Position numbers and translations under genes: made by a program. Shown here piece after piece: positions 49,929 through 63,772 of a DNA stretch of 64,000 bases. Each line of letters opens with the position of its first letter. Position 1 is the stretch's first letter. The notes below the pieces were generated by a model. That model was not told the DNA's origin. It searched no databases and worked only from the letters and a program-made list of their open reading frames with translations. Source of the DNA: Lacisediminihabitans changchengi (GTDB lineage: Bacteria; Actinomycetota; Actinomycetes; Actinomycetales; Microbacteriaceae); contig NZ_JAEPES010000001.1 in assembly GCF_016634425.1 (NCBI RefSeq), positions 124,001-188,000 of the forward strand, given 5' to 3'.

Positions 49929-50008
49929 CTTCCGAAATGAAGGTCTTCCGAAATGAAGGTCTTCCGAAATGAAGGTCTTCCGAAATGAAGGTCTTCCGAA
50001 ATGAAGGT
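49929..50008. repeat. 16-bp tandem repeat, 5 perfect units
   Basis: CTTCCGAAATGAAGGT repeated five times, 34 bp upstream of the EamA start. The inner segment TTCCGAAATGAAGG recurs in reverse complement once at 50067-50080, at the edge of the next repeat array. Confidence 0.97.
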
Positions 50009-50073
50009 GATTTTGAACTGGGCGCGGAGTGTTGACGACGACACACCGCATCCGTTCTGAAAAAGCCTTCATT
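50009..50073. other. Spacer between two minisatellites
   Basis: This 65-bp spacer, and the 65 bp at 50218-50282 after the second array, show no gene or clear signal. Together with the arrays, 49896-50282 is a 387-bp stretch without a supported gene between the EamA start and the LLM oxidoreductase stop. Confidence 0.5.
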
Positions 50074-50217
50074 TCGGAAATGTGCACGCCATCGGAAATG
50101 TGCAGGCCGTCGGAAATGTGCAGGCCGTCGGAGATGTGCACGCCATCGGAAATGTGCAGGCCGTCGGAGATGTGCATGCCATCGGAAATGTGCACGCCAT
50201 CGGAAATGTGTACGCCG
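50074..50217. repeat. 18-bp tandem repeat, 8 units
   Basis: Units of TCGGAAATGTGCACGCCA with recurrent A/G and C/G changes (for example TCGGAGATGTGCACGCCA). It lies 65 bp downstream of the LLM oxidoreductase stop on the minus strand. One reading frame would give a repeated HISDG(M/L/V) hexapeptide, but no start signal supports translation. Confidence 0.97.
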
Positions 50218-50282
50218 TCAGGTCAGCAACGTGCACAAGGTGCAGGGCCCCGCTTCGGAGAAATGGAGCGCCGGAAGCGCCG

Positions 50283-51104
50283 CTACTTCGCGTTTTTCGC
50301 GTCGCGCCAGTCGAGCCAGTCGCGCACCGGCGAGAGGTCGTAGTCGGGGCCGCTGATGCCGAGCGTGAAGAGCGTTGTACCGAGCTCGAACACCTCGTCG
50401 GCGTCGGCGACGGTGCGGCGAGACAGTTCGGTCGAGATCTCGATCTGGCTCGTGTCGCGACCGACGGCGTCACCGTGCTCGGCCAGGATGCCCAGCTTGC
50501 GCTCCAGGGTCGCCGCGTCGCTGAACGAGTGCCAGATGTCGGCGTGCTTCGCGACGATACGCAGCGTCTTCTTCTCGCCACCGCCACCGATCAGCACCGG
50601 GATGTGCCGGGTGGGCGGCGGGTTGAGCTTGGTCCAGCGCTCCTCGATGACCGGCAGGTTGGCGGCGAGCGCGTCGAGCCGCTGCCCGACGGTGCCGAAC
50701 TCGTAGCCGTACTCGTCATAGTCGCGCTCGAACCAGCCCGAGCCGGTGCCGAAGATGAAGCGCCCGGTTCCGGTTCCCTTCGCGCTGATGTGGTCGATGG
50801 TGCGGGCCATGTCGGCCTGCAGGTTCGCGTTGCGGTAGCTGTTGCAGTTGACCAAGGCACCGAGTTCGACGCGGCTGGTCTGCTCGGCGAGGGCCGCGAG
50901 CATCGTCCAGGACTCGAAGTGCAGGCCATCCGGTTCGCCGGAGAGCGGGTAGAAGTGGTCCCAGTTGAAGAGGATGTCTACGCCCATCTCCTCGAGCTCG
51001 GCCGCGGTGTCGCGGATTTTCTCGTAGTAGGCGTGCTGGGGGGCGATCTGCACCCCGAGGCGGACAGGCCTGCCACCAACTGTGCTGCTCTTCTCTGAAG
51101 TCAT
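50283..51104 (-). CDS. LLM-class (F420-dependent-type) oxidoreductase
   Basis: A 273-aa luciferase-like TIM-barrel flavin/F420 oxidoreductase. VRLGVQIAPQHAYYEKIRDT, VDILFNWDHFYPLSGEPDG, GRFIFGTGSGWFERDYDEYG and PVLIGGGGEKKTLRI are the class motifs. Substrate unknown. It starts 51 bp after the 2,4-dienoyl-CoA reductase-like gene and on the same strand, so it may be the last gene of the 58.4-51.2 kb operon. Two tandem-repeat arrays follow its stop. Confidence 0.87.
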   Translation of the reverse strand: MTSEKSSTVGGRPVRLGVQIAPQHAYYEKIRDTAAELEEMGVDILFNWDHFYPLSGEPDGLHFESWTMLAALAEQTSRVELGALVNCNSYRNANLQADMARTIDHISAKGTGTGRFIFGTGSGWFERDYDEYGYEFGTVGQRLDALAANLPVIEERWTKLNPPPTRHIPVLIGGGGEKKTLRIVAKHADIWHSFSDAATLERKLGILAEHGDAVGRDTSQIEISTELSRRTVADADEVFELGTTLFTLGISGPDYDLSPVRDWLDWRDAKNAK

Positions 51105-51155
51105 GAAATCGAGCCTACGACTGCAAGACGGCGCGGAGGTGTCGACCCGGCAAAT

Positions 51156-53192
51156 TCACGCTCGCGTGATCTCGCGCGCGGCGGCCAGCGCCTCGGCCGT
51201 CGCTCGAACCGCATCCACCCCGGTCGCGTCGCGGGCGCCCCCGACCACCAGATGACGGATGCCGGCGGCCACGAGCCCCGGCACGAGCGAGTCGTTCCGC
51301 TCCTGCCCCGCACACACGATCACCGTTCGCCCGGGGATCATCTCGATCCCCTCGGCGGTCTCGATCTCGACACCGTCAGCGGTGATCCGCCGGTAGCCGA
51401 GGTCGGTGCGCATGCTCACGCCGTGATCGCGAAGGCGCCCGAGCGCCACCCAGCGCGAGCTGATGCCGATCCCGGCGCCGAAGCGGCCGGAGCGGCGCAA
51501 CACGGTCACCTGACTGCCGGGGCGGAGTCGCGTCGTGTGCCCCACCCGCGCCAGGTGATCGGTGGGCGGCAGGTCGAACCGCGCGGAGAACTCCACGGCG
51601 CGGGTGCGTTCGTCGTGCGACTCGACCAGGTACGCGGCGACATCCACGCCGATCCCTCCCCCGCCGATGATCGCCACCGTTCCCGGCGGCACCCCCTCGC
51701 GCAGCGCACGCTCGTAGCTCAGCACGTGCGGCAGATCGGCGCCGGGGATGTCGACCCGACGCGGCACAACGCCGGTCGCCACGATCACCCCGTCAAAGTC
51801 TGCGAGGTCGTCAGCGGTTGCGAGTGTCCCGAAGCGCAGCTCAGAGCCGGCGAGTTGCGTCAGCGCCGCACTCACGGTGAGCGCGTAGTCCTCCTTGCCC
51901 GGGATACGGGCCGCCAGAGCGAACTGGCCGCCCGGTTCGTCGGCGTCGAACAGGGTCACCGCGTGCCCCCGTCGATGGAGATCGGCCGCAGCAGCGAGGC
52001 CCGCCGGCCCGGCGCCCACTACCGCGACCGAGCGTCGTGTCTCGAGCACCAGCGGATAGCGCGTCTCCCGCGCCGCCCTCGGGTTGACCAGGCACGACAC
52101 CGGTTCGAAGACGAGCGACCGGTCGATGCAGGCCTGATTGCAGCCGATGCAGGAGTTCACGGCACCGAAGTCTTCCGCGAAACTGCGCTCCACGATTCGC
52201 GGGTCGGCGAGAAAGGGCCGCGCCAGGGCGACCGCCGCGATGTCGCCCCGGGACAACACCGCCTCCACGTCGCGCAGGTCGGTGAGGCGGTTGCTCGCGA
52301 TCACCGGGACAGCACCGTCGACAACGGCAGCGATGCGCTCGGCGTACACGAGCCAGGCGCCGTGCGGCACCGACGCCTGCACGGTCGGCACGCGCGACTC
52401 GTGCCAGCCGACGCCGACGCTCAGACCGTCGACACCAGCACCATACTCAGTTCTCGGCACCAGTGACCGAGCGAGGTCATCCGTCTCCTCCTGGGTGGAC
52501 GATCCTGGCATCAGGTCGGCGCCCGACATCCGCACCAGCACCGGGAGGTCGCCCACCGCCGCCCGCACCGCGCGCAGCGTCTCGACCGCGAACCGCCGCC
52601 GCCGAGCGGCGTCACCGCCCCACTCGTCGTCGCGCAGGTTGGTGAGCGGAGAGCAGAACTGGTTGATCAGATAGCCCTCCGAGGCCATGATCTCGACCGC
52701 GTCGAAGCCGACCTCCCTGGCAACGGATGCCGCGCGCGCAAAGTCCTCGATGGTGGCGAGCACTTCGTGCCCCGAGAGCTGTCGCGGCACGGCGCCACGC
52801 GCGGCACTCCACGGCACAGCGGAGGGAGCCACCGCCTGCATCGGCCCGTCTGCGTCGGCGAGGCTCAGCGCGTATCGTCCGGCGTGGAACAGCTGCGCGG
52901 AGATCAAGCCGCCCGCCTCGTGCACGGAATCGGTGACCTTCTGCCAGCGTGAACGCTGATCGGTCAGCACCCCGTAGTCGGGACCGCCGCGGCCGACCGA
53001 GCTGACCGCGAGGCCGCCGGTGATGACGAGCGCGGCACCGCCGATCACCCGTTCGCGGTAGAACTCGGCGAGAGCCGCTCCCCCGTCGTCGGCCACCTCC
53101 AGCCCGGTATGCATCGAGCCCATGACGACCCGGTGCTGGACCTCCAGCCCGCCGAGCCGCCACGGACTGCGGGTGAGCGGAAGGAGGTTCAC
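51156..53192 (-). CDS. 2,4-dienoyl-CoA reductase-type old yellow enzyme, FadH-like
   Basis: A 678-aa enzyme with the FadH plan: an N-terminal FMN TIM barrel (1-370), a 4Fe-4S cluster and a C-terminal FAD/NADPH domain (VAVVGAGPAGLAAAADL from 389). The active-site tyrosine Y174 (SEGYLINQF) and histidine H264 (VGWHESRVPT) match those of E. coli FadH. Cluster cysteines are C348, C351, C355 and C367. It should reduce a conjugated dienoyl-CoA with NADPH. In this operon the likely substrate is a cyclohexadienyl-carbonyl-CoA intermediate (inference). Its GTG overlaps the SDR stop by four bases. Confidence 0.92.
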   Translation of the reverse strand: MNLLPLTRSPWRLGGLEVQHRVVMGSMHTGLEVADDGGAALAEFYRERVIGGAALVITGGLAVSSVGRGGPDYGVLTDQRSRWQKVTDSVHEAGGLISAQLFHAGRYALSLADADGPMQAVAPSAVPWSAARGAVPRQLSGHEVLATIEDFARAASVAREVGFDAVEIMASEGYLINQFCSPLTNLRDDEWGGDAARRRRFAVETLRAVRAAVGDLPVLVRMSGADLMPGSSTQEETDDLARSLVPRTEYGAGVDGLSVGVGWHESRVPTVQASVPHGAWLVYAERIAAVVDGAVPVIASNRLTDLRDVEAVLSRGDIAAVALARPFLADPRIVERSFAEDFGAVNSCIGCNQACIDRSLVFEPVSCLVNPRAARETRYPLVLETRRSVAVVGAGPAGLAAAADLHRRGHAVTLFDADEPGGQFALAARIPGKEDYALTVSAALTQLAGSELRFGTLATADDLADFDGVIVATGVVPRRVDIPGADLPHVLSYERALREGVPPGTVAIIGGGGIGVDVAAYLVESHDERTRAVEFSARFDLPPTDHLARVGHTTRLRPGSQVTVLRRSGRFGAGIGISSRWVALGRLRDHGVSMRTDLGYRRITADGVEIETAEGIEMIPGRTVIVCAGQERNDSLVPGLVAAGIRHLVVGGARDATGVDAVRATAEALAAAREITRA

Positions 53193-54007
53193 TCAGAACC
53201 GAACACAGCCGCGCGCAGGTCTCCCGTGGTGTCGGCCCAGAACGGCGGCGCGACCACGGTGAGCCCGCCATCGACGACGAGCGTCTGCCCGGTGATGTAG
53301 CCGGCCTGCGGAGACAGCAGGAATTCGACGGCGGAGGCCATGTCATCCGCTGTTCCGGGGCGGCCGAGCGGGATCTTCTCGATCACCGTCTCCATGGGGG
53401 CCATGCCGGGAACGCTGTTGTAGAAATAGTCGAGCGAGTCGGTATCGATGAGGCCGCCGTTGACCGCGTTGACGGTGATATTGCGCGGGCCGAACTCGGT
53501 GGCCATGAACTTCACATACGACTCGTTCGCGGCCTTGGCCGCGCCGAGCGAGGCATAGGTCGGGAACGCCCGCAACGACCCGTAGCTGGTGACCACCACG
53601 ATGCGCCCGCCGGTCGCCGGCATGAGGTCGACCGCGCGCTGTGCGCCGAGCACGAAGGAGCGCACGTTCATCGCCCAGTTGCGATCGAGGTGGTGCAGCT
53701 TGAGTGCGCTGACCGGCTTGAAGGCGCTGGCGGCGGCGTTCGCGACGAAATAGTCGAGCCGGCCGAACCGCTCCCGTGCCGCCTCGAACAGCGCGTCGAT
53801 ATCGTCGGGCTCCTCCATGTCGGCGCGTACGGTGATGCCGTCGGCACCGGCAGCCCGCACCTCGGCGAGCGCCTCCTCGGCGAGGTCGGCGTTGGCTTTG
53901 TAGTTGATGACGATGTCGACACCGCGAGCGGCGAGCTTGCCGGCCAACAGTCGACCGATCCCGCGGGAGCTCCCGGTGATGAGGGCGACGGGCGAGTCTT
54001 CTGACAT
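53189..54007 (-). CDS. SDR enoyl-thioester reductase, FabL/ChcA-like (putative 1-cyclohexenylcarbonyl-CoA reductase)
   Basis: A 272-aa short-chain dehydrogenase fold. The cofactor loop is ITGSSRGIG (10-18). The active site is Y151 and K158, spaced Y-x6-K rather than the Y-x3-K of ordinary SDRs; this spacing is the mark of enoyl reductases such as FabI and FabL. NAVNGGLIDTDSL closely resembles the FabL segment NAVSGGAIDTDAL. ChcA of Streptomyces collinus, which reduces 1-cyclohexenylcarbonyl-CoA, belongs to this general type. Its place between an acyl-CoA dehydrogenase and a dienoyl-CoA reductase fits that role. Other enoyl-CoA substrates remain possible. Confidence 0.85.
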   Translation of the reverse strand: MSEDSPVALITGSSRGIGRLLAGKLAARGVDIVINYKANADLAEEALAEVRAAGADGITVRADMEEPDDIDALFEAARERFGRLDYFVANAAASAFKPVSALKLHHLDRNWAMNVRSFVLGAQRAVDLMPATGGRIVVVTSYGSLRAFPTYASLGAAKAANESYVKFMATEFGPRNITVNAVNGGLIDTDSLDYFYNSVPGMAPMETVIEKIPLGRPGTADDMASAVEFLLSPQAGYITGQTLVVDGGLTVVAPPFWADTTGDLRAAVFGSE

Positions 54008-54032
54008 GTCTTCTCTATTCAGTTCTCGGGGG

Positions 54033-55205
54033 TTAGTTCGTCACAGCGCCGGTGACGACCGCGCGCCCGACGATGAGTTTCTGAATCTCATTGGTTCCCT
54101 CTTCGAACCGCTGCGCCCTGGCGTCTCGGTACACCCGCTCGATCGGGTTGCGCTTCCAGTAGCCGCTGCCGCCGTGCACCTGCAGTGCCTTGTCCGTGAC
54201 CCGGGTGAGCATGTCGACGGCGATCATCTTCGAGGCGCTCGAGAGCACCCCCGCATCGGCTGCGCCCTCTTCGAAGGCCTTCGCCGCGTGGATGACCAGT
54301 GCTCTCGCCGCGGCGATGTCGGCGTAATTCTCGGCCAGGTAGAACTGGATCGCCTGCCGATCGGCGATCTTCTTGCCGAAGGTCTCGCGGCGATTCGCGT
54401 ACTCGACGGCGAGCTCCTGGGCACGCTCGGCCAGGCCGACGCAGCTCATCGCGACGGAGACCCGGCTCGGCAGCAGGAATCCGCCGAGCATGATCGTGAG
54501 TCCCTGCCCCTCCTCGCCCAGCCGATTCGCCACGGGCACCGGGGTGTTATCGAAGTGCAGGATGGCGTGATCGGTGCCGCGAACCCCCATGGTCTCGGAG
54601 TCGTCGATCACCTCGGCGCCCGGAAGCCCGGCGTTGGGGACCAACAGCGCGACGGTGCCGTCCTGCCCGGTCGAGCCCTCGAGCCGGGCGAGCAGCAGCC
54701 AGTAGTCGCATTTCACCCCGAAGGTGATCAGCTGCTTCTCGCCGCTGAGATAGTAGGTGTCGCCCTCTCGACGGACGGTGGTGCGGATGTCCGCGCCGGT
54801 TCCGGCCGTCGCCTCCGTGAGTGTGAAGGCCACCAGCACATCGCCCGCCACCGACGGGCGTACGATCTGGTCGCGCTGCGCCTCGGTCGCGAACTCATCC
54901 ATGGCCCGCCAGGTGCCGTTGATCACATGCACCAGCATGCGGATCGAGGCGTGCGAACGGGAGAAGATCTCCATCAGCTCCAGGTATCGGCTGAACGGGA
55001 TGTCTTTGCCGCCGAGTCGTTCCGGAGCCGCCAGCCCGAGAAAACCGTGGGCCTTCAGGTCGAGAAACAGCTCGGGCGGCACGATCCCGGTCGCTTCGAT
55101 CTGGTTCGCGAAATCCTCGCCGGGGCCCCGCACCCACGCATCGACGTCGGCTTTGAGCAACTGGAACGCCGCGTCGTCGAGGACGGCCATGTCGAGGACG
55201 GTCAT
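54033..55205 (-). CDS. Acyl-CoA dehydrogenase-family flavoprotein
   Basis: A 390-aa acyl-CoA dehydrogenase. Motifs are VAFTLTEATAGTGADI, YYLSGEKQLITFG, ALQVHGGSGYWKRNPIERVY and FEEGTNEIQ with E369 at the usual catalytic-base position. The ATG overlaps the stop of the EPSP-synthase-like/CoA-ligase gene (ATGA), with AAGGAG five bases upstream. In the cyclohexanecarboxyl-CoA pathway an enzyme of this family acts on a ring-carboxyl CoA thioester; that assignment is by context. Confidence 0.9.
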   Translation of the reverse strand: MTVLDMAVLDDAAFQLLKADVDAWVRGPGEDFANQIEATGIVPPELFLDLKAHGFLGLAAPERLGGKDIPFSRYLELMEIFSRSHASIRMLVHVINGTWRAMDEFATEAQRDQIVRPSVAGDVLVAFTLTEATAGTGADIRTTVRREGDTYYLSGEKQLITFGVKCDYWLLLARLEGSTGQDGTVALLVPNAGLPGAEVIDDSETMGVRGTDHAILHFDNTPVPVANRLGEEGQGLTIMLGGFLLPSRVSVAMSCVGLAERAQELAVEYANRRETFGKKIADRQAIQFYLAENYADIAAARALVIHAAKAFEEGAADAGVLSSASKMIAVDMLTRVTDKALQVHGGSGYWKRNPIERVYRDARAQRFEEGTNEIQKLIVGRAVVTGAVTN

Positions 55206-58200
55206 ACTGTCTCCTTCTGCATTGAGTGAGAAGTCTGCGTTGACTGAGAAGTCTGCGTTGACTGAGAACTCTGCGTTGACTGAGAACTGTCCGGTGGAGC
55301 GGCATCTCCCAGCGCAGCGGCGCGCTCTCTGAGGATATTCTTCTGCACCTTGCCCACGGCGTTTCGGGGCAGCGCGTCGATCGGCTCGATCCGCTCCGGC
55401 CAGTAATACTTCGAGACGCCGGCCCGATCGAGATAGCGCTGCATCTCGCGCAGCCCCAGCAGCGAGCCGCGGGCCGGAACGATGAACGCGCACGCGCGCT
55501 CACCGAGCCGCGCGTCGGGCATGGCGACGATTGCCACGTCGGCCACCTGCTCATGCTGGTAGAGCAGATTCTCGATCTCGGCCACCGGAATCTTCTCCCC
55601 TCCCCGGTTGATGACATCCTTCACCCGTCCGGTGAGATGCAGAAACCCGGACGCGTCGAGATACGCGAGATCGCCGGTGCGATACCAGCCGTCGGCGGTG
55701 AAGACATCTGCGGTGAGGTCGGGCCGCTCGAGATAACCGTCGAACATTGTGGGCGACAGCAGCTCGAAGTTGCCCTCGACCCCCGCGGGCATCCGGGCTC
55801 CGGTGTCGTCGACGATGCGGATGCGCACACCGCGCAGGGCGCGCCCGTCGCTGCCCCAGGCATCCGCTGCCCTATCGCCGGGGGCTGCCAGAGCGCCGAG
55901 ACACGTCTCGGTGGTGCCGAACGCGCCGAGAACCGACGCGTCGAGCACCGTGGTGGCCCGCCCGGCGAGGTCTCGGGGAACCGCTGCACCGGTCACCACG
56001 AAGATGCGCAGCGACTCCGGCGCCGGAGCGCCGTGTTCCACCAGGTCGACCAGATCGGTGAGAAACGGGGTCGCCGCCTGCACGAACGTCGCCCGCGCCT
56101 GCCCGAAGGCATGATCTAGCGCGAGCGAGGCATCCCAGGCGGGCTGGATCACGCTGGCGACCCCGAGTCGCCAGGCCAGCAACATGCCATAGAGAAACCC
56201 GGTCTGGTGGGCGAGCGGCGAGGGAACGTAGATGCGGTCGTCGGCGGTGAGATCGAGGTGGCGCACCTCCATCGCCGTGGCCAGGGCGAGGGTGCGGTGA
56301 GAGTGCTGAACGCCCTTCGGCTCCCCCGTCGTGCCGGAGGTGAACAGTAGCTGGAACAGGTCATCGGGGCGAGGAGCGCGCGACCGGATCAGCTCGAGGT
56401 CAGGGGTCACGGCGGCGAGCGCACTGTCGTAGTAGCGCCATGACCAGTTGGTTGGGGCGTTGCGGTCGTTCGCTGCCTCCGGAATGGGAGCGGATGACGT
56501 CGACTCCTCGCTCCCATATCGGCTCTCGGAGCGCAGCACCACGATGTTCTCCAGGGCGAGCGACCTACCCTGGGAACGTGCTTCGGCCACCACGTCGATG
56601 AGTTCGGCCGCCGGGCGCCGCCTGCGAAAGACGTTCGGGAGGAACAGCACCCTGGCGTGCGAACGGGCGAGCGTCATCGTGACCTCGCGGGTGCCGAACA
56701 CCGGCATGATCGGTGTCACGACGGCGCCGATCTGCGCGATGCCGAGGGTGATCGCCACGAACTCGCGCCAGTTGGGCAGTTGCAGTGCCACGGCATCCCC
56801 GCGCTGCACGCCGAGGTCGAGCAGCAGCGCCGAGATGCGATCGGCCTCGTCCTGGAGTTCGCGCCACGAGGTCGAGGCTGGCTTCTCTGCGCCCACCTCG
56901 ATCACCGCCGGCGCATCGGGCTGTGCCACGGCGAGCGCGCGAACGGCCTCGGTGAGCACGAGCGGATCGGCCGCCAGACCGTCAGACCACCCCGGGGCTG
57001 CGCCGTCGACATCCGTAGCACCCTCCCGCGCGCCGCCCTCTGCCTCGGTCGCTACCTCTTCGGCCGCCTCCGCCGCTGCGGCCGCGGCTGGCGCCGCGAT
57101 ACACACGTCCAGCGCGATCGAGGTCATCGATTCGAGAAAGGTCGGGTAGCTGATGCGATAGGCCCGCGGATACGTCAGATCAGACTGCCCTGCCGCCCGC
57201 GTCGCAGCGACGGCAAGCGCCATCAGCACGCGATGGTCATTGAACGACGACATCCCGGCCGCGCGCAGCCCGGCCGACTCGAGACCCGTCACCCCGGTCA
57301 CCCGCAGCTCATCGGCGGACTGCTCGACGGCGCCGCCCATGCGGTTCAGCTGCAACATCGCCGCCACCCGATCCGATTCCTTCAACCTGATGTGGCCGAT
57401 GTTGCGAAAATTGCTGGTGCCGTCTGCGAACGTCGCCATCGTGGCCAGCACCGGCAGCAGGTCGGGAATGGGCTGACAGTCGATATCGAGCGGTTTCAGA
57501 CGGATGCCGTCGTGCCGAATGCGCACGAACCCGGTCTCGTCCCGCTCGAGTGGCACTCCCATCGCGGTCGCCAGGTCGAGGAACTCCGCTTCGGGGTGAT
57601 CGGTCTCGGCGGCGGTGGTGGCATGAAGCCCACGGAACAGCACGTCGGAGGGATGGATCGCCGCTGCCGCGATGCCGAATGCGGCCGAGCCGATGTCGGG
57701 CGGAAGCACGTATGTCGTCGGCGCGGCGGTCTGATTCGCCGGGATGCGGTAGGTGAGCCAGTCGTCATCGTGCTCCACCATCAGGCCGAACTGCCGCATC
57801 ATCCGCACGGTCAGCTCTACGTACGGCTGCTCGTTCAGCGCCCCTCCGGTCACATGGATGACGGAGTCGTTCATGGCGAAGGGCGCGAGCAACAGCAGAC
57901 CGCTCAGCCACTGCGACAGGGTGCCGGCGATGGAGACCTCACCGCCCGTCGGGCGCTGCGGGTGCACGGTGATCGGCGGGCAGTCATCCGTCGCTTCGAG
58001 GCGCACGCCCAGCTGGCGCAGCGAATCGAGCAGCGCTCTGATGGGGCGCCGACGAAAGTACTTCATACCGGTGAGCGTCGTCGGCCGGTCGGATAGTGCG
58101 GCAAGACCGGTCATGAAGTACAACGTCGTACCCGAAGAACCGACGTTGAGCAGCCCCTCGTTCCCCCGACTTCCGCGCTCGATCAGGTCGGTACCGTGGT

Positions 58201-58447
58201 AGCGACTGCTGCCGGCCGGCGCGCCGGTGACGAGGTAGTCATTTCCCTCGATACGGATGTCGGTGCCCAACGACCGCAAGACGCTCACCGTCCACTCCAC
58301 CTGCCTGGTCGTCGAAATACCGGTGATCACTGACGTGCCCGGTGCGAGGGAGGCCAGCACGAGCGCGCGATGCGCGTGGTATTTCGAGACCGGGATGTGG
58401 AGCTCTCCGGTCAGACGGTGGTCGGTTCCCCTCACCAGCAAGCGCAC
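55202..58447 (-). CDS. Fusion of EPSP-synthase-like domain and AMP-dependent acyl-CoA ligase
   Basis: A 1081-aa two-domain protein. Residues 1-445 form an AroA (EPSP synthase) fold. K22, R27, R134, S178, Q179, D329, K356, E357, R360, H405 and R406 match key E. coli EPSPS residues. However, the positions of S23, R100, S169 and K411 are Y23, Y110, L177 and I432, so ordinary EPSP synthesis is doubtful. An Ala/Glu-rich linker spans 451-490. Residues 495-1045 are an acyl-CoA synthetase with LLFTSGTTGEPKG (701-713), YRTGD (922-926) and the A10 lysine K1033. The GTG has AAAGGTG seven bases upstream. The last 25 residues (SQSTQT-type) come from an 18-bp tandem repeat. It likely performs the first dehydration and the CoA activation in cyclohexanecarboxyl-CoA synthesis. 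Confidence 0.9.
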   Translation of the reverse strand: MRLLVRGTDHRLTGELHIPVSKYHAHRALVLASLAPGTSVITGISTTRQVEWTVSVLRSLGTDIRIEGNDYLVTGAPAGSSRYHGTDLIERGSRGNEGLLNVGSSGTTLYFMTGLAALSDRPTTLTGMKYFRRRPIRALLDSLRQLGVRLEATDDCPPITVHPQRPTGGEVSIAGTLSQWLSGLLLLAPFAMNDSVIHVTGGALNEQPYVELTVRMMRQFGLMVEHDDDWLTYRIPANQTAAPTTYVLPPDIGSAAFGIAAAAIHPSDVLFRGLHATTAAETDHPEAEFLDLATAMGVPLERDETGFVRIRHDGIRLKPLDIDCQPIPDLLPVLATMATFADGTSNFRNIGHIRLKESDRVAAMLQLNRMGGAVEQSADELRVTGVTGLESAGLRAAGMSSFNDHRVLMALAVAATRAAGQSDLTYPRAYRISYPTFLESMTSIALDVCIAAPAAAAAAEAAEEVATEAEGGAREGATDVDGAAPGWSDGLAADPLVLTEAVRALAVAQPDAPAVIEVGAEKPASTSWRELQDEADRISALLLDLGVQRGDAVALQLPNWREFVAITLGIAQIGAVVTPIMPVFGTREVTMTLARSHARVLFLPNVFRRRRPAAELIDVVAEARSQGRSLALENIVVLRSESRYGSEESTSSAPIPEAANDRNAPTNWSWRYYDSALAAVTPDLELIRSRAPRPDDLFQLLFTSGTTGEPKGVQHSHRTLALATAMEVRHLDLTADDRIYVPSPLAHQTGFLYGMLLAWRLGVASVIQPAWDASLALDHAFGQARATFVQAATPFLTDLVDLVEHGAPAPESLRIFVVTGAAVPRDLAGRATTVLDASVLGAFGTTETCLGALAAPGDRAADAWGSDGRALRGVRIRIVDDTGARMPAGVEGNFELLSPTMFDGYLERPDLTADVFTADGWYRTGDLAYLDASGFLHLTGRVKDVINRGGEKIPVAEIENLLYQHEQVADVAIVAMPDARLGERACAFIVPARGSLLGLREMQRYLDRAGVSKYYWPERIEPIDALPRNAVGKVQKNILRERAAALGDAAPPDSSQSTQSSQSTQTSQSTQTSHSMQKETV
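55210..55289. repeat. 18-bp tandem repeat, 3 full and 2 partial units, in coding sequence
   Basis: Units GAGAAGTCTGCGTTGACT at 55228, 55246 and 55264 (one G-to-C change), with degenerate flanking copies. It encodes the SQSTQT-like tail of the fusion protein and stops about five bases before the ribosome site of the next gene. Confidence 0.92.
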
Positions 58448-58559
58448 GGAGCTTCACCTTTCCTCCGTCGCGAGGGCGGAAGAGGACGGTGCGGCCGAGA
58501 CCGCACAGGCGGCGCTCCGCTCGGCTCACCACACGGAATCAGCGGGGAGCCGAGCCAGA

Positions 58560-58614
58560 GCGACGGGGATCGCCCGTCGCTAAAAAAGCTATTGCCTGAT
58601 CGCCGCGGCGATCA
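58560..58614. promoter_or_regulatory. Paired palindromes upstream of the fusion-gene operon
   Basis: TGATCGCCGCGGCGATCA (58597-58614) is a perfect 18-bp palindrome. GCGACGGG (58560-58567) pairs with CCCGTCGC (58573-58580) around a 5-base loop. Between them, on the minus strand, is TTTTTT. They could be the ffh terminator region, or operator sites for the downstream operon. Confidence 0.5.
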
Positions 58615-58639
58615 ACACGCGGAGGGGCCTTTTCTGGGC

Positions 58640-58751
58640 CAGGCTCAGCGCCGGGCAGGTTCAGCGCCGGGCAGGTTCAGCGCCGTTCAGGTTCAGCGCC
58701 GTTCAGGTTCAGCGCCGTTCAGGTTCAGCGCCGTTCAGATTCAGAGCCGGG
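58640..58751. repeat. 16-bp tandem repeat, 7 units, directly after ffh
   Basis: Seven units of CAGGTTCAGCGCCGTT (two end in GGG instead of GTT; the outermost are slightly degenerate). The array begins two bases after the ffh stop codon. Confidence 0.96.
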
Positions 58752-58752
58752 G

Positions 58753-60369
58753 TCAGCCGCGGCCGAGGAACTTCTGCAGCGAGGCGAGTTCTTCCTCGCT
58801 CGGTCCTCCCGCTGACCCGGGGTTGCCCCCACCGAGCCCGAAGCCCGAGCCTGCAGCGGCGCCACTGGACGGCTTCGCTCCCGCGGCCATGGCAGCGTTC
58901 TCCGCCGCGCGCTTGGCCGGGTTGCCCGACTTCGAGCTCTTCTTCTTCGGCTGCTGCTTGCGGCCACCGCCAAAGTTCGCTCCCGGAATCGGGCCCATGC
59001 CGGGAACCTGTGGCACACCGCCCTTGGCGACGGTCTTCATCATCTTGGCGGCCTGCTCGAAACGGTTGACCAGGGCGTTTACCTCGGTGACCGTCGTGCC
59101 GGAACCGCGAGCGATGCGCACCCGACGCGAGCCGTTCAGCACCTTGGGCTGGCGGCGCTCCTGCATCGTCATCGACTGGATGATCGCCTCGGTGCGCGTG
59201 ATCTCCGACTCGTCGAAGTTCTCGAGCTGCTGGCGCATGCCCTTGGCGCCGGGCAGCATCCCGAGCATGTTCTTGATCGAGCCCATGTTCTTGAGCTGCT
59301 GCATCTGCTTCAAGAAGTCGTCGAGGGTGAAGCTGTCCGTCGCGAACTTCTCCGCGGTCTTGCGCGCCTCCTCCTCATCGAAGGCACCCTGCGCCTGCTC
59401 GATCAGGGTGAGGATGTCACCGAGGTCGAGGATGCGGCTGGCCATGCGGTCGGGATAGAACGGCTCGAAGTCATCCAGGCCCTCACCGGTCGAGGCGAAG
59501 ATGATCGGGCGACCGGTGACAGAGGCGACGGAGAGCGCCGCGCCACCGCGGGCGTCACCGTCGAGCTTGGTGAGCACGACCGCGGTGAAGTCGACGCCCT
59601 CCTGGAAGGCCTTGGCCGTCGCGACCGCGTCCTGGCCGATCATGGCGTCGATGACGAAGAAGACCTCATCGGGATCGATGGCCTTGCGGATGTCGGCAGC
59701 CTGCTTCATCAGTTCTTGGTCGACACCGAGACGGCCGGCCGTGTCGACGATGACAACGTCGTACTGCTTGTCGCGGGCGAACTTCATCGCGTCTTTGGCG
59801 ACCTTGACCGGGTTGCCGACGGTTCCGCCGAAGAAGCCGCGGCTCGGGGCCGCGTCCTCGGCGCCCACGTTGCCGGGCTCAGGCGCGAAGACCGGAACGC
59901 CGGCCTGCTCGCCGACGACCTTGAGCTGGGTGACGGCGTTAGGGCGCTGGAGGTCGGCGGCGACCAGCAGCGGAGTGTGATTCTCTTTGGCGAGCCACTT
60001 GGCGAGCTTGCCGGCGAGGGTCGTCTTACCGGCACCCTGAAGGCCGGCGAGCATGATGACCGTCGGCGGATTCTTGGAGAACTGGATGCGGCGGGCTTCG
60101 CCACCGAGGATGGCGACCAGTTCGTCGTTGACGATCTGCACCACCTGCTGGGCCGGGTTCAGCGCCTTCGAGACCTCGTCACCGAGGGCGCGCTCGCGCA
60201 CCTTCGAGGTGAAGTCTTTGACGACATCGAGCGAGACGTCGGCGTCGAGCAGGGCGCGACGGATCTCGCGGACGGTACCGTCGACATCCGCCGGGCTGAG
60301 CTTGCCCTTGCCGCGGAGGTTCTTGAAGGTATCGACGAGTCGGTCGGTGAGGTTTCCAAACGTGGCCAT
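58753..60369 (-). CDS. ffh: Signal recognition particle protein Ffh
   Basis: A 538-aa SRP54 GTPase with the N domain, G domain (GLQGAGKTTLAGKLAKWLA, DTAGRLGVDQEL, TKLDGDARGGAAL) and the Met-rich M domain (MLPGAKGMRQQLENFDESEI, GSRRVRIARGSGTTVTEVN). The last 70 residues are a Gly/Ala/Lys-rich tail. It targets nascent membrane proteins. It ends two bases before a 16-bp minisatellite and is divergent from the LLM gene at 60427. Confidence 0.97.
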   Translation of the reverse strand: MATFGNLTDRLVDTFKNLRGKGKLSPADVDGTVREIRRALLDADVSLDVVKDFTSKVRERALGDEVSKALNPAQQVVQIVNDELVAILGGEARRIQFSKNPPTVIMLAGLQGAGKTTLAGKLAKWLAKENHTPLLVAADLQRPNAVTQLKVVGEQAGVPVFAPEPGNVGAEDAAPSRGFFGGTVGNPVKVAKDAMKFARDKQYDVVIVDTAGRLGVDQELMKQAADIRKAIDPDEVFFVIDAMIGQDAVATAKAFQEGVDFTAVVLTKLDGDARGGAALSVASVTGRPIIFASTGEGLDDFEPFYPDRMASRILDLGDILTLIEQAQGAFDEEEARKTAEKFATDSFTLDDFLKQMQQLKNMGSIKNMLGMLPGAKGMRQQLENFDESEITRTEAIIQSMTMQERRQPKVLNGSRRVRIARGSGTTVTEVNALVNRFEQAAKMMKTVAKGGVPQVPGMGPIPGANFGGGRKQQPKKKSSKSGNPAKRAAENAAMAAGAKPSSGAAAGSGFGLGGGNPGSAGGPSEEELASLQKFLGRG

Positions 60370-62416: not shown

Positions 62417-63772
62417 CTACCCAGTGCCCATCGGGATCACCACCTTCCCTCCGCGTCGGGGCACCCGGTCGGTGTCGATCCACGGTGGTGGGACGAAGTA
62501 TGGCACCCGTTCGCGCATCACGATCTCCCATCCGTCGTCGTGGATGCGGTGGTGGTGGAACGAGCACAACGGGATGCCGTTGGCCAGATCGGTCGGCCCG
62601 CCGTTCGACCACCAGTGGAGATGGTGCGCCTCGGTGTAGCTGGGTGGGTGCGCGCAGGACGGGAAAACACAGCCGCCGAAGTGTTCGGCCAATGCCTGTC
62701 GTTGTGCGGTGCTGAACAGTCGTCGTGACCGGCCCAGGTCGAGCACCTCGCCCTCCCCACCGAGCACTGCGGGGATGATGTTCGCCTCCGCCGCAAGGAG
62801 ACGTGCGGTGGTGGCGGAGATCCCGGCCTCGATGCCGTCTATCTGTGCGGCACCGCACCCGTCGAGGAGCTGGTCGAGAGTCATCCGTATAACCATCGTC
62901 ACCAGAGGAACCGTTGGCGCCGTCCCGAAGGATGCAATGGCCGCCCGGAACAGCTCTTCGGCGGCATCGGCGCGGCGTTGTGGCATGGTGCGGTCGTCGA
63001 GATCCACCATCCCATCCGTGGCGAGCCCCTGCTGGTCGCGGTCGCGTTTTTGCCGCAACTGCTCCCCTACGAGATGGTCGATACCGGCGCGGACGAGTCC
63101 GGCTGTTTCGGGTGGCATGGTCCACACGAACCGGGTCATTCCGTCCGGAAGCTGCACCATCGTCAACGACCGGCGGTGCCGGCGGATCACATCTCGTGGT
63201 TCGGCACCGTCTTGGTCGAGGTGGTCACGGACGTGCCGGGCGATACCGGCGACCTGTTTCACCGTCAACCCAGGCGCGTGATCGACCAGTGCCCGTTCGC
63301 CGGCAAGACGTGCGTCGGCACTGCAGCGGGGGGCGGCCTGCTCGAGTTCGTGCACGATCACCGCCGCGGCGTCGGCACTGACCGCACCCGTGGCCAGCGC
63401 CTCCCCGATGGCTGGGTAGCGGGCGGGAAGCGCTGATCCGTCCACCGCGGTCGCCGCCCTGGTTGCCTCACCAACCTCACACAGTCGGACACCCTCAGCT
63501 GAGGTGAGCTGCCACAACTCGGCAAGGAACAGCCCCGGTCTCGAGTGACCCGCCCGTCGCGCTATGCCGTCGCCACCGAGGTGAGGTGCTGAGCGGTGCG
63601 CGAGTTCGCCAGCGACCTGCGTCTGTGCATGATCGAGAGCCCGCCGCACACTGCGGAGATCCGCGGTGAGCGCGAGAAACTCGTCCGCCGACAGCGCCTC
63701 GAGATCGACGTCTCCCCACTCGTCAGCGAACGCACCGATGCGTGACGCGAGGGCCCGGGTGGAGAGCATCAT
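62417..63772 (-). CDS. DUF222/HNH endonuclease domain protein
   Basis: A 451-aa protein with an N-terminal DUF222 region (about 10-330, helical) and a C-terminal HNH motif: CVFPSCAHPPSYTEAHHLHW, NGGPTDLANGIPLCSFHHH, IHDDGWEI. Proteins of this type are present in many copies in Actinobacteria, often near repeats or mobile elements; their targets are not established. Length is normal and the HNH histidines and asparagine are intact. No partner genes mark it as part of a known element. Confidence 0.88.
   Translation of the reverse strand: MMLSTRALASRIGAFADEWGDVDLEALSADEFLALTADLRSVRRALDHAQTQVAGELAHRSAPHLGGDGIARRAGHSRPGLFLAELWQLTSAEGVRLCEVGEATRAATAVDGSALPARYPAIGEALATGAVSADAAAVIVHELEQAAPRCSADARLAGERALVDHAPGLTVKQVAGIARHVRDHLDQDGAEPRDVIRRHRRSLTMVQLPDGMTRFVWTMPPETAGLVRAGIDHLVGEQLRQKRDRDQQGLATDGMVDLDDRTMPQRRADAAEELFRAAIASFGTAPTVPLVTMVIRMTLDQLLDGCGAAQIDGIEAGISATTARLLAAEANIIPAVLGGEGEVLDLGRSRRLFSTAQRQALAEHFGGCVFPSCAHPPSYTEAHHLHWWSNGGPTDLANGIPLCSFHHHRIHDDGWEIVMRERVPYFVPPPWIDTDRVPRRGGKVVIPMGTG

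What the first reader, a model, noticed from the sequence alone, without database searches (positions are those of the whole stretch)
55202..58447. Single-chain fusion of an AroA-like domain and an acyl-CoA ligase with substituted EPSP-synthase active site
The frame is open for 1081 codons with two complete domains and an Ala/Glu linker (451-490). By eye, the positions of E. coli S23, R100, S169 and K411 are Tyr, Tyr, Leu and Ile, while K22, R27, R124, Q171, D313, K340, E341, R344, H385 and R386 are kept. Loss of some substrate and phosphate contacts, with the acid-base residues retained, suggests an elimination on a shikimate-type substrate rather than enolpyruvyl transfer. Fusion to the ligase would pass the unstable dihydroxycyclohexadiene acid straight to CoA. 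I know of the two activities as separate proteins; the fusion may be undescribed.
Basis: partly seen in the sequence, partly recalled or inferred. Interest (0 to 1): 0.9.

Follow-up and report, generated by a model that had tools for sequence, protein, structure and literature searches.

The report
Fused shikimate-to-cyclohexane-acid enzyme gene
This gene joins a repurposed aromatic-amino-acid enzyme to a CoA ligase and heads a four-gene set that most likely turns shikimate into a cyclohexane building block for unusual membrane fats; related fused genes recur in actinobacteria, so it is a good example of a known kind rather than a new invention.

Summary
On the minus strand, 58447 to 55202, one open frame of 1081 codons encodes an EPSP-synthase-like domain, a disordered linker and a complete acyl-CoA ligase. 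Further changes were missed, notably S197 to Glu. An ordinary aroA lies elsewhere in the assembly. It is not a sequencing error: 70 of 80 named loci carry the fusion; Herbiconiux has the two genes unfused.

The fusion starts a conserved cassette (fusion, acyl-CoA dehydrogenase, SDR, old-yellow-enzyme reductase) in the order of plmJK-plmL-chcA-plmM of phoslactomycin clusters, which make cyclohexanecarboxyl-CoA. So 'undescribed fusion' probably does not hold. No modular-PKS dehydratase domain was found in the window's genome. The cassette also occurs in Curtobacterium pusillum and Propionibacterium cyclohexanicum, documented makers of omega-cyclohexyl fatty acids. Best reading: it makes the cyclohexanecarboxyl-CoA starter for such lipids, and the AroA-like domain is a PEP-independent shikimate 1,4-dehydratase that hands its diene acid to the ligase. 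The chemistry is inferred, not shown.

The parts
55202..58447 (-). fused gene: EPSP-synthase-like domain + acyl-CoA ligase, 1081 aa
   Evidence: fused in 70 of 80 named loci
57125..58420 (-). EPSP-synthase-like domain (residues 10-441)
   Evidence: PF00275 E 1.4e-76; PDB EPSPS hits down to E 7.7e-49; Foldseek best hits are EPSP synthases
56969..57097 (-). Ala/Glu-rich linker (residues 451-493), predicted disordered
   Evidence: pLDDT under 50
55730..56932 (-). AMP-binding domain of the ligase (residues 506-906)
   Evidence: PF00501 E 4.3e-69
55349..55579 (-). AMP-binding C-terminal domain (residues 957-1033)
   Evidence: PF13193 E 1e-11
54033..55205 (-). acyl-CoA dehydrogenase (PlmL position); its likely ATG overlaps the fusion's stop codon (ATGA)
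   Evidence: PF00441/02770/02771; junction read; relatives align from this point
53189..54007 (-). short-chain dehydrogenase/reductase, FabL-like (ChcA position)
   Evidence: PF13561 E 1.2e-57; NF005975 FabL 242 bits, below its cut-off of 328
51156..53192 (-). old-yellow-enzyme / 2-enoate reductase type flavoprotein (PlmM position)
   Evidence: PF00724 E 5.5e-57, PF07992
58753..60369 (-). ffh (SRP protein), upstream neighbour also in many Microbacteriaceae; flank, not part of the pathway
   Evidence: TIGR00959 above cut-off; same neighbour

Best explanation
The gene is the entry enzyme of a cyclohexanecarboxyl-CoA (CHC-CoA) cassette. The N-terminal domain, derived from EPSP synthase, most likely removes water from shikimate by 1,4-elimination (the 3-OH and a proton from C6) without PEP, giving a dihydroxycyclohexadiene carboxylate. 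The C-terminal domain activates that unstable acid with ATP and CoA. The following acyl-CoA dehydrogenase-like protein, SDR and OYE-type reductase reduce and dehydrate it to CHC-CoA. In this actinobacterium, in which no modular-PKS dehydratase domain was found, the product most likely primes fatty-acid synthesis, giving omega-cyclohexyl fatty acids. Shown here: domains, substitutions, operon, conservation, co-occurrence in documented producers. Inferred: every reaction step, the substrate (shikimate rather than its 3-phosphate), E206 as the acid that expels the 3-OH, and the lipid end product in this strain.
For: Order fusion-ACAD-SDR-OYE equals plmJK-plmL-chcA-plmM as listed for phoslactomycin-type clusters with CHC-CoA starter (PMC5852498 passages and section 7). 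The set recurs: 57 of 70 fused named loci show all three other genes in the held DNA. The cassette is in C. pusillum (L071, L077, L093, L109) and P. cyclohexanicum (L115), documented omega-cyclohexyl fatty acid makers (PMC3426160, PMC5023266 passages); Herbiconiux, where cyclohexyl-C17:0 'may be present' (PMC10011130 passage), has it with the two first domains as two genes. No PS-DH domain in the own genome nor in 7 of 7 non-Streptomyces/Streptosporangium genomes tested, but in 11 of 11 of the latter. Active-site changes hold through 89 rows. Separate AroA.
Against: No activity or lipid data for this strain. The AroA-like domain still passes NCBI's aroA equivalog cut-off (307.6 against 287.25 bits) and keeps most of the residues recalled as PEP contacts (K22, R124, R344, R386), which a PEP-free dehydratase would not obviously need. 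The ligase is far below the cut-off of the cyclohexanecarboxylate-CoA ligase equivalog (430.3 against 792.3 bits). PMC5852498 speaks of six CHC-CoA genes, only four positions are matched here. Of the 70 fused named loci, six with more DNA downstream lack recognisable partners: L114 and L125 show only the dehydrogenase, L128, L131, L136 and L137 no OYE. The cassette also occurs in Curtobacterium luteum and C. flaccumfaciens, which I do not know as producers (recalled). Two members of the window's own genus show no match.
Confidence: 0.72

Rival explanations
1. Same pathway, but the AroA-like domain acts on shikimate-3-phosphate and eliminates phosphate, as chorismate synthase does with EPSP, giving the same diene acid.
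For: K340, S170 and Q171, recalled as phosphate contacts, are kept (89 of 89), and phosphate is a better leaving group than hydroxide.
Against: S169 is lost and S197, recalled as close to the 3-phosphate, is Glu in 89 of 89; an invariant acid there should repel phosphate.
Confidence: 0.17
2. A second working EPSP synthase (for example glyphosate-tolerant) that happens to be fused to a ligase.
For: Passes TIGR01356 (307.6 against 287.25 bits); D313, E341, H385 kept.
Against: S23, N94, R100, S169, S197 and K411 changed across the family; a normal AroA is present; the operon is CoA-ester chemistry, not aromatic amino acid synthesis.
Confidence: 0.04
3. The cassette makes CHC-CoA or a related cyclic acyl-CoA for a polyketide or another secondary metabolite rather than for lipids.
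For: In several Streptomyces the fused gene lies about 17-20 kb from PKS dehydratase domains; in the two stretches scanned, class II DAHP synthase, DHQ synthase-like and GFO/IDH/MocA oxidoreductase genes of the AHBA kind lie near.
Against: No PS-DH domain in the own genome (a PKS without that domain is not excluded), and the upstream neighbour is ffh, as in many other Microbacteriaceae.
Confidence: 0.12

Closest known systems
plmJK-plmL-chcA-plmM of phoslactomycin clusters (pnP1-P4, lmP1-P4)
   Same: Matching functions in the same order; the first gene carries two letters, J and K, in one gene annotated as AMP ligase; starter CHC-CoA (PMC5852498 passages and section 7).
   Different: There it primes a modular PKS; here no PS-DH domain was found in the genome and ffh is next door. 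I held no PlmJK sequence, so its fused nature rests on the name, the table and recall.
CHC-CoA genes of the ansatrienin cluster (ansJ, ansK, ansL, ansM, chcA; recalled)
   Same: Same set of activities, shikimate-derived cyclohexanecarbonyl unit (recalled).
   Different: Recalled as separate J and K genes. The ansamycin-like Streptomyces loci seen here (L116, L119) carry them fused.
Omega-cyclohexyl fatty acid synthesis of Alicyclobacillus and Sulfobacillus
   Same: Same kind of lipid (PMC5023266 and PMC4378227 passages); shikimate origin and genes for it stated for Sulfobacillus (PMC4378227).
   Different: I could not test whether those Bacillota use this EPSPS-like family; the passage names no genes.
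EPSP synthase (AroA)
   Same: Fold and most charged active-site residues.
   Different: S23, N94, R100, S169, S197 and K411 replaced throughout the family; fused to a ligase; ordinary AroA present besides.

Membership tests
CHC-CoA cassette (plm/ans type) | Genes for EPSPS-like enzyme, acyl-CoA ligase, acyl-CoA dehydrogenase, SDR reductase and OYE-type reductase together in this order | tested here: met
   order compared with the PMC5852498 Table 2 passage
CHC-CoA cassette (plm/ans type) | SDR is orthologous to ChcA | tested here: inconclusive
   FabL-like SDR in the ChcA position; no ChcA reference sequence held
CHC-CoA cassette (plm/ans type) | Produces CHC-CoA from shikimate | not testable with these tools
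   needs enzymes or labelled feeding
EPSP synthase (AroA) | Profile and fold | tested here: met
   TIGR01356 307.6 bits, cut-off 287.25; Foldseek top ten all EPSPS, TM to target 0.83-0.86
EPSP synthase (AroA) | Ligand residues S23, R100, S169, S197, K411 (roles recalled) | tested here: not met
   replaced or deleted in every readable row of 89 (K411: 88 Ile, 1 Thr; two rows have gaps at S23)
EPSP synthase (AroA) | Enolpyruvyl transfer to shikimate-3-phosphate | not testable with these tools
   biochemical assay needed
Cyclohexanecarboxylate-CoA ligase TIGR03208 equivalog | Score over the curated cut-off | tested here: not met
   430.3 against 792.3 bits
Omega-cyclohexyl fatty acid producers | Cassette shared with documented producers | tested here: met
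   C. pusillum and P. cyclohexanicum loci; producers documented in passages of PMC3426160, PMC5023266
Omega-cyclohexyl fatty acid producers | Cyclohexyl acyl chains in the lipids of this organism | not testable with these tools
   needs GC-MS of the strain

The most novel reading that the evidence does not exclude
The AroA-like domain is a PEP-independent shikimate 1,4-dehydratase, a new reaction for the enolpyruvyl-transferase fold, in which invariant Glu206 (E. coli S197) sits where the 3-phosphate would be and expels the 3-hydroxyl; the tether to the ligase protects a diene acid that would otherwise aromatise, and the ffh-linked cassette is the genetic basis of omega-cyclohexyl membrane lipids in Microbacteriaceae, as its relative is in Propionibacterium cyclohexanicum.
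Probability: 0.45. Interest if true: 0.6.

Novelty: new member of a known kind. Interest (0 to 1): 0.4.

Why it matters
Omega-cyclohexyl fatty acids have been known in C. pusillum and P. cyclohexanicum for decades (works of 1981 and 1997 cited in the papers). This ties that trait to a compact four-gene cassette whose presence or absence can be checked in any genome, and it names the likely enzyme and residues for the first step. It also flags a naming trap: the protein passes the standard aroA model, so automatic annotation may call a non-AroA enzyme AroA.

Tried and rejected
Sequencing error joining two genes: rejected. The fused frame recurs in 17 of 150 family genomes (own included; one of the 17 is cut by a contig end), with 2 further genomes split and 2 with a ligase hit only, and in 70 of 80 named loci. 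The 10 named loci not fused are 7 in the Herbiconiux group (L097-L101, L103, L110; L098 is titled Microbacteriaceae bacterium), a broken copy in Frondihabitans sucicola (L074), a fragmented Curtobacterium assembly (L113) and one Eremiobacterota MAG (L134). Direction of fusion: the tree has 61 of the 89 family rows (I dropped 28 before building, mostly Curtobacterium) plus two AroA references, with 13 open forks and a long-branch warning, so I claim no direction; five split Herbiconiux-group rows fall with the fused L104 at 94/87.

Plasmids: no match to the EPSPS-like domain at E 1e-40. Phylum sample: 5 of 396 genomes at E 1e-70, own included; the other four carry stand-alone genes that overlap a separate ligase gene by 8 bases. 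Literature: all 10 searches used (listings were capped in several). I opened passages or sections of eight papers; none describes the biochemistry of this fusion. The original phoslactomycin and ansatrienin cluster papers did not appear in the listings. Statements on ansJ/ansK and on shikimate 1,4-elimination are recalled. The ligand roles of individual E. coli AroA residues are recalled too (one search found nothing). No promoter-like site, and 4 terminator-like sites against 3.1 expected, in 50000-59000.

Full report
What is there. The finding's coordinates are right but the gene lies on the minus strand: GTG at 58447, stop at 55204-55202, 1081 aa. A GGAGGA lies 13 bases upstream of the GTG (sequence). 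Pfam gives EPSP_synthase at residues 10-441, AMP-binding at 506-906 and AMP-binding_C at 957-1033, each over its cut-off. A model of the whole chain has mean pLDDT 71 and pTM 0.49, with the linker, 451-493, under 50. Its ten best Foldseek matches are EPSP synthases (TM to target 0.83-0.86); aryl-acid adenylating enzymes and acyl-CoA synthetases follow. Parts of the ligase are poorly modelled.

The active site. I took E. coli K-12 AroA from its genome record and the own genome's AroA as references. In 19 family rows and then 89 rows (window, 80 named loci, 8 others; not all independent, since some loci are the same contig fetched twice), K22, R27, G96, R124, S170, Q171, Y200, D313, K340, E341, R344, D384, H385 and R386 are kept in every row that has the position (two rows lack residues 22-27). 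S23 is Tyr, N26 His, R100 Tyr, F172 Trp, S197 Glu and N336 His in every such row; N94 is Ser in 88 and Ala in 1; K411 is Ile in 88 and Thr in 1; S169 falls on a one-residue gap (Leu if the gap is moved one column). Not every change is diagnostic: the own ordinary AroA has His at 336, His at 340 and Glu at 313. The strongest extra clue is Glu for S197, a residue that I recall as near the 3-phosphate of the substrate.

A separate AroA exists. The own genome (3.41 Mb, 6 contigs, 96.8% complete, 11.6% contamination) has three PF00275 genes: the window's, one on contig C2 that reads as ordinary AroA (340.6 bits) and one on C1 that I read as MurA (assigned by eye). The contamination figure is a caveat on which organism the C2 copy belongs to.

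The operon. The stop of the fusion overlaps the likely ATG of an acyl-CoA dehydrogenase gene (ATGA, 55205-55202). An SDR (54007-53189) and an OYE-type flavoprotein (53192-51156) follow, the last two overlapping by four bases. For phoslactomycin-type clusters the table of PMC5852498 lists plmJK (AMP-dependent synthetase and ligase), plmL (short-chain-CoA dehydrogenase), chcA (cyclohexenylcarbonyl-CoA reductase) and plmM (NADH:FMN oxidoreductase) in that order, and the text gives six genes to cyclohexanecarboxyl-CoA starter synthesis (passages; section 7). The match of function and order is close for these four. I held no PlmJK sequence; that it is a fusion of J and K is from the name and recall.

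Distribution. In 150 genomes of the window's family, 21 match at E 1e-60: 17 with the fused gene (own included), 2 with the two domains as separate overlapping genes, 2 with a ligase hit only. In 396 genomes of the phylum 5 match at E 1e-70, own included. The scan of named genomes found 226 relatives and kept the best 80: among them Curtobacterium, Subtercola, Frondihabitans, Humibacter, Gryllotalpicola, Herbiconiux, Luteimicrobium, Kocuria, Propionibacterium cyclohexanicum, Microlunatus, Streptomyces, Streptosporangium, Arthrobacter and relatives, Acidothermus, and Eremiobacterota MAGs. Of these 80, 70 have both domains in one frame. Of the 70, 57 show all three other genes in the DNA held and 13 do not: seven run out of contig (L061, L076, L084, L102, L112, L117, L129), L114 and L125 show only the dehydrogenase, and L128, L131, L136 and L137 the dehydrogenase and SDR but no OYE. 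Herbiconiux has the two domains as two genes; in L098 and L101 the frames overlap by four bases. The window's sequence groups with three Microbacteriaceae MAG sequences (98/95) and is at most 79% identical to any row, a Subtercola.

What it feeds. Modular-PKS dehydratase domains (PF14765) occur in 11 of 18 genomes tested, exactly the ten Streptomyces and one Streptosporangium, and in none of the seven others, which include C. pusillum, P. cyclohexanicum, Subtercola lobariae and Humibacter albus; the own genome has none. Of the best copies in those eleven genomes, four lie about 17-18 kb from a listed PKS dehydratase domain (G547, G549, G550, G552; the listing is cut, so this is a lower bound), and in L111 a ketosynthase frame lies about 5 kb past the fused gene; for the other six no near PKS was seen in the listing. 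Two second copies lie about 20 kb from one (G548, G554). In L145, the contig of L119, the neighbours include a PKS with an AMP-binding loading part, a dehydroquinate-synthase-like gene and a GFO/IDH/MocA oxidoreductase; in L146, the contig of L116, a class II DAHP synthase lies beside the cassette. I read these as ansamycin (AHBA) clusters of the ansatrienin kind, which carry a cyclohexanecarbonyl group (recalled); no AHBA synthase was among the frames I scanned. In Microbacteriaceae with enough DNA the cassette often sits by ffh. C. pusillum and P. cyclohexanicum are documented makers of omega-cyclohexyl fatty acids (PMC3426160 and PMC5023266 passages), a 1986 title reports them in another Curtobacterium from zinc-treated soil (reference in PMC5118839), and Herbiconiux may have cyclohexyl-C17:0 (PMC10011130 passage). 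That these taxa carry the cassette is the main evidence for a lipid role. The match is not perfect as far as I know: C. luteum and C. flaccumfaciens carry it too, and I do not recall them as producers.

How it likely works. From recalled labelling work, CHC-CoA synthesis starts by a 1,4-elimination of water from shikimate, then CoA activation and alternating reductions and dehydrations. An EPSPS fold already binds a shikimate ring and holds acid-base residues. Loss of the S169, K411 and N94 side chains should weaken PEP and phosphate binding, while Glu206 in place of S197 could protonate the leaving 3-hydroxyl. This is inference. The kept K22, R124, R344 and R386 are unexplained by a PEP-free reaction and are the best argument for rivals. 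Tethering the ligase would shorten the life of a free diene acid that tends to aromatise; but split forms exist (Herbiconiux; the four genomes), so the tether is not essential.

Verdict. The part that may be new is the link from this ffh-side cassette to cyclohexyl lipids in Microbacteriaceae, and a sharp, testable proposal for the first enzyme. My ten literature searches (listed in Tried and rejected) showed no paper on this link, but the library lacks most subscription journals and listings were capped, so I make no claim of priority.

Noticed in passing
window 55216-55286: An 18-base unit repeated 3.9 times encodes the Ser/Gln/Thr-rich C-terminal tail of the fusion; the 11 aligned relatives do not show this repeat.
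   Followed up: partly
window 58640-58749: A 16-base unit repeated 6.9 times lies between ffh and the fused gene.
   Followed up: no
G000 C1:897152-898198 and C3:436061-437107 (L003, L004): Two ligase hits with identical score, identity and frame length on two contigs; with 11.6% contamination this hints at a duplicated or mixed assembly.
   Followed up: no
L143 (G554) and L144 (G548): Three Streptomyces genomes (G548, G554, G555) have a second family copy; in the two that I fetched it is fused but none of the other cassette genes was recognised within the 20 kb held.
   Followed up: partly
L147-L150: Four genomes of another family in the phylum carry stand-alone EPSPS-like and ligase genes overlapping by 8 bases, 45-47% identical to the window's domains.
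   Followed up: partly
window 62417-63772: DUF222 protein whose C-terminal part weakly matches a phosphorothioated-DNA restriction endonuclease model (31.1 bits, cut-off 180), probably just an HNH part.
   Followed up: no
L124, L127, L129, L134: Eremiobacterota MAGs carry the fused or split gene too, outside Actinomycetota; transfer or binning error not resolved.
   Followed up: no
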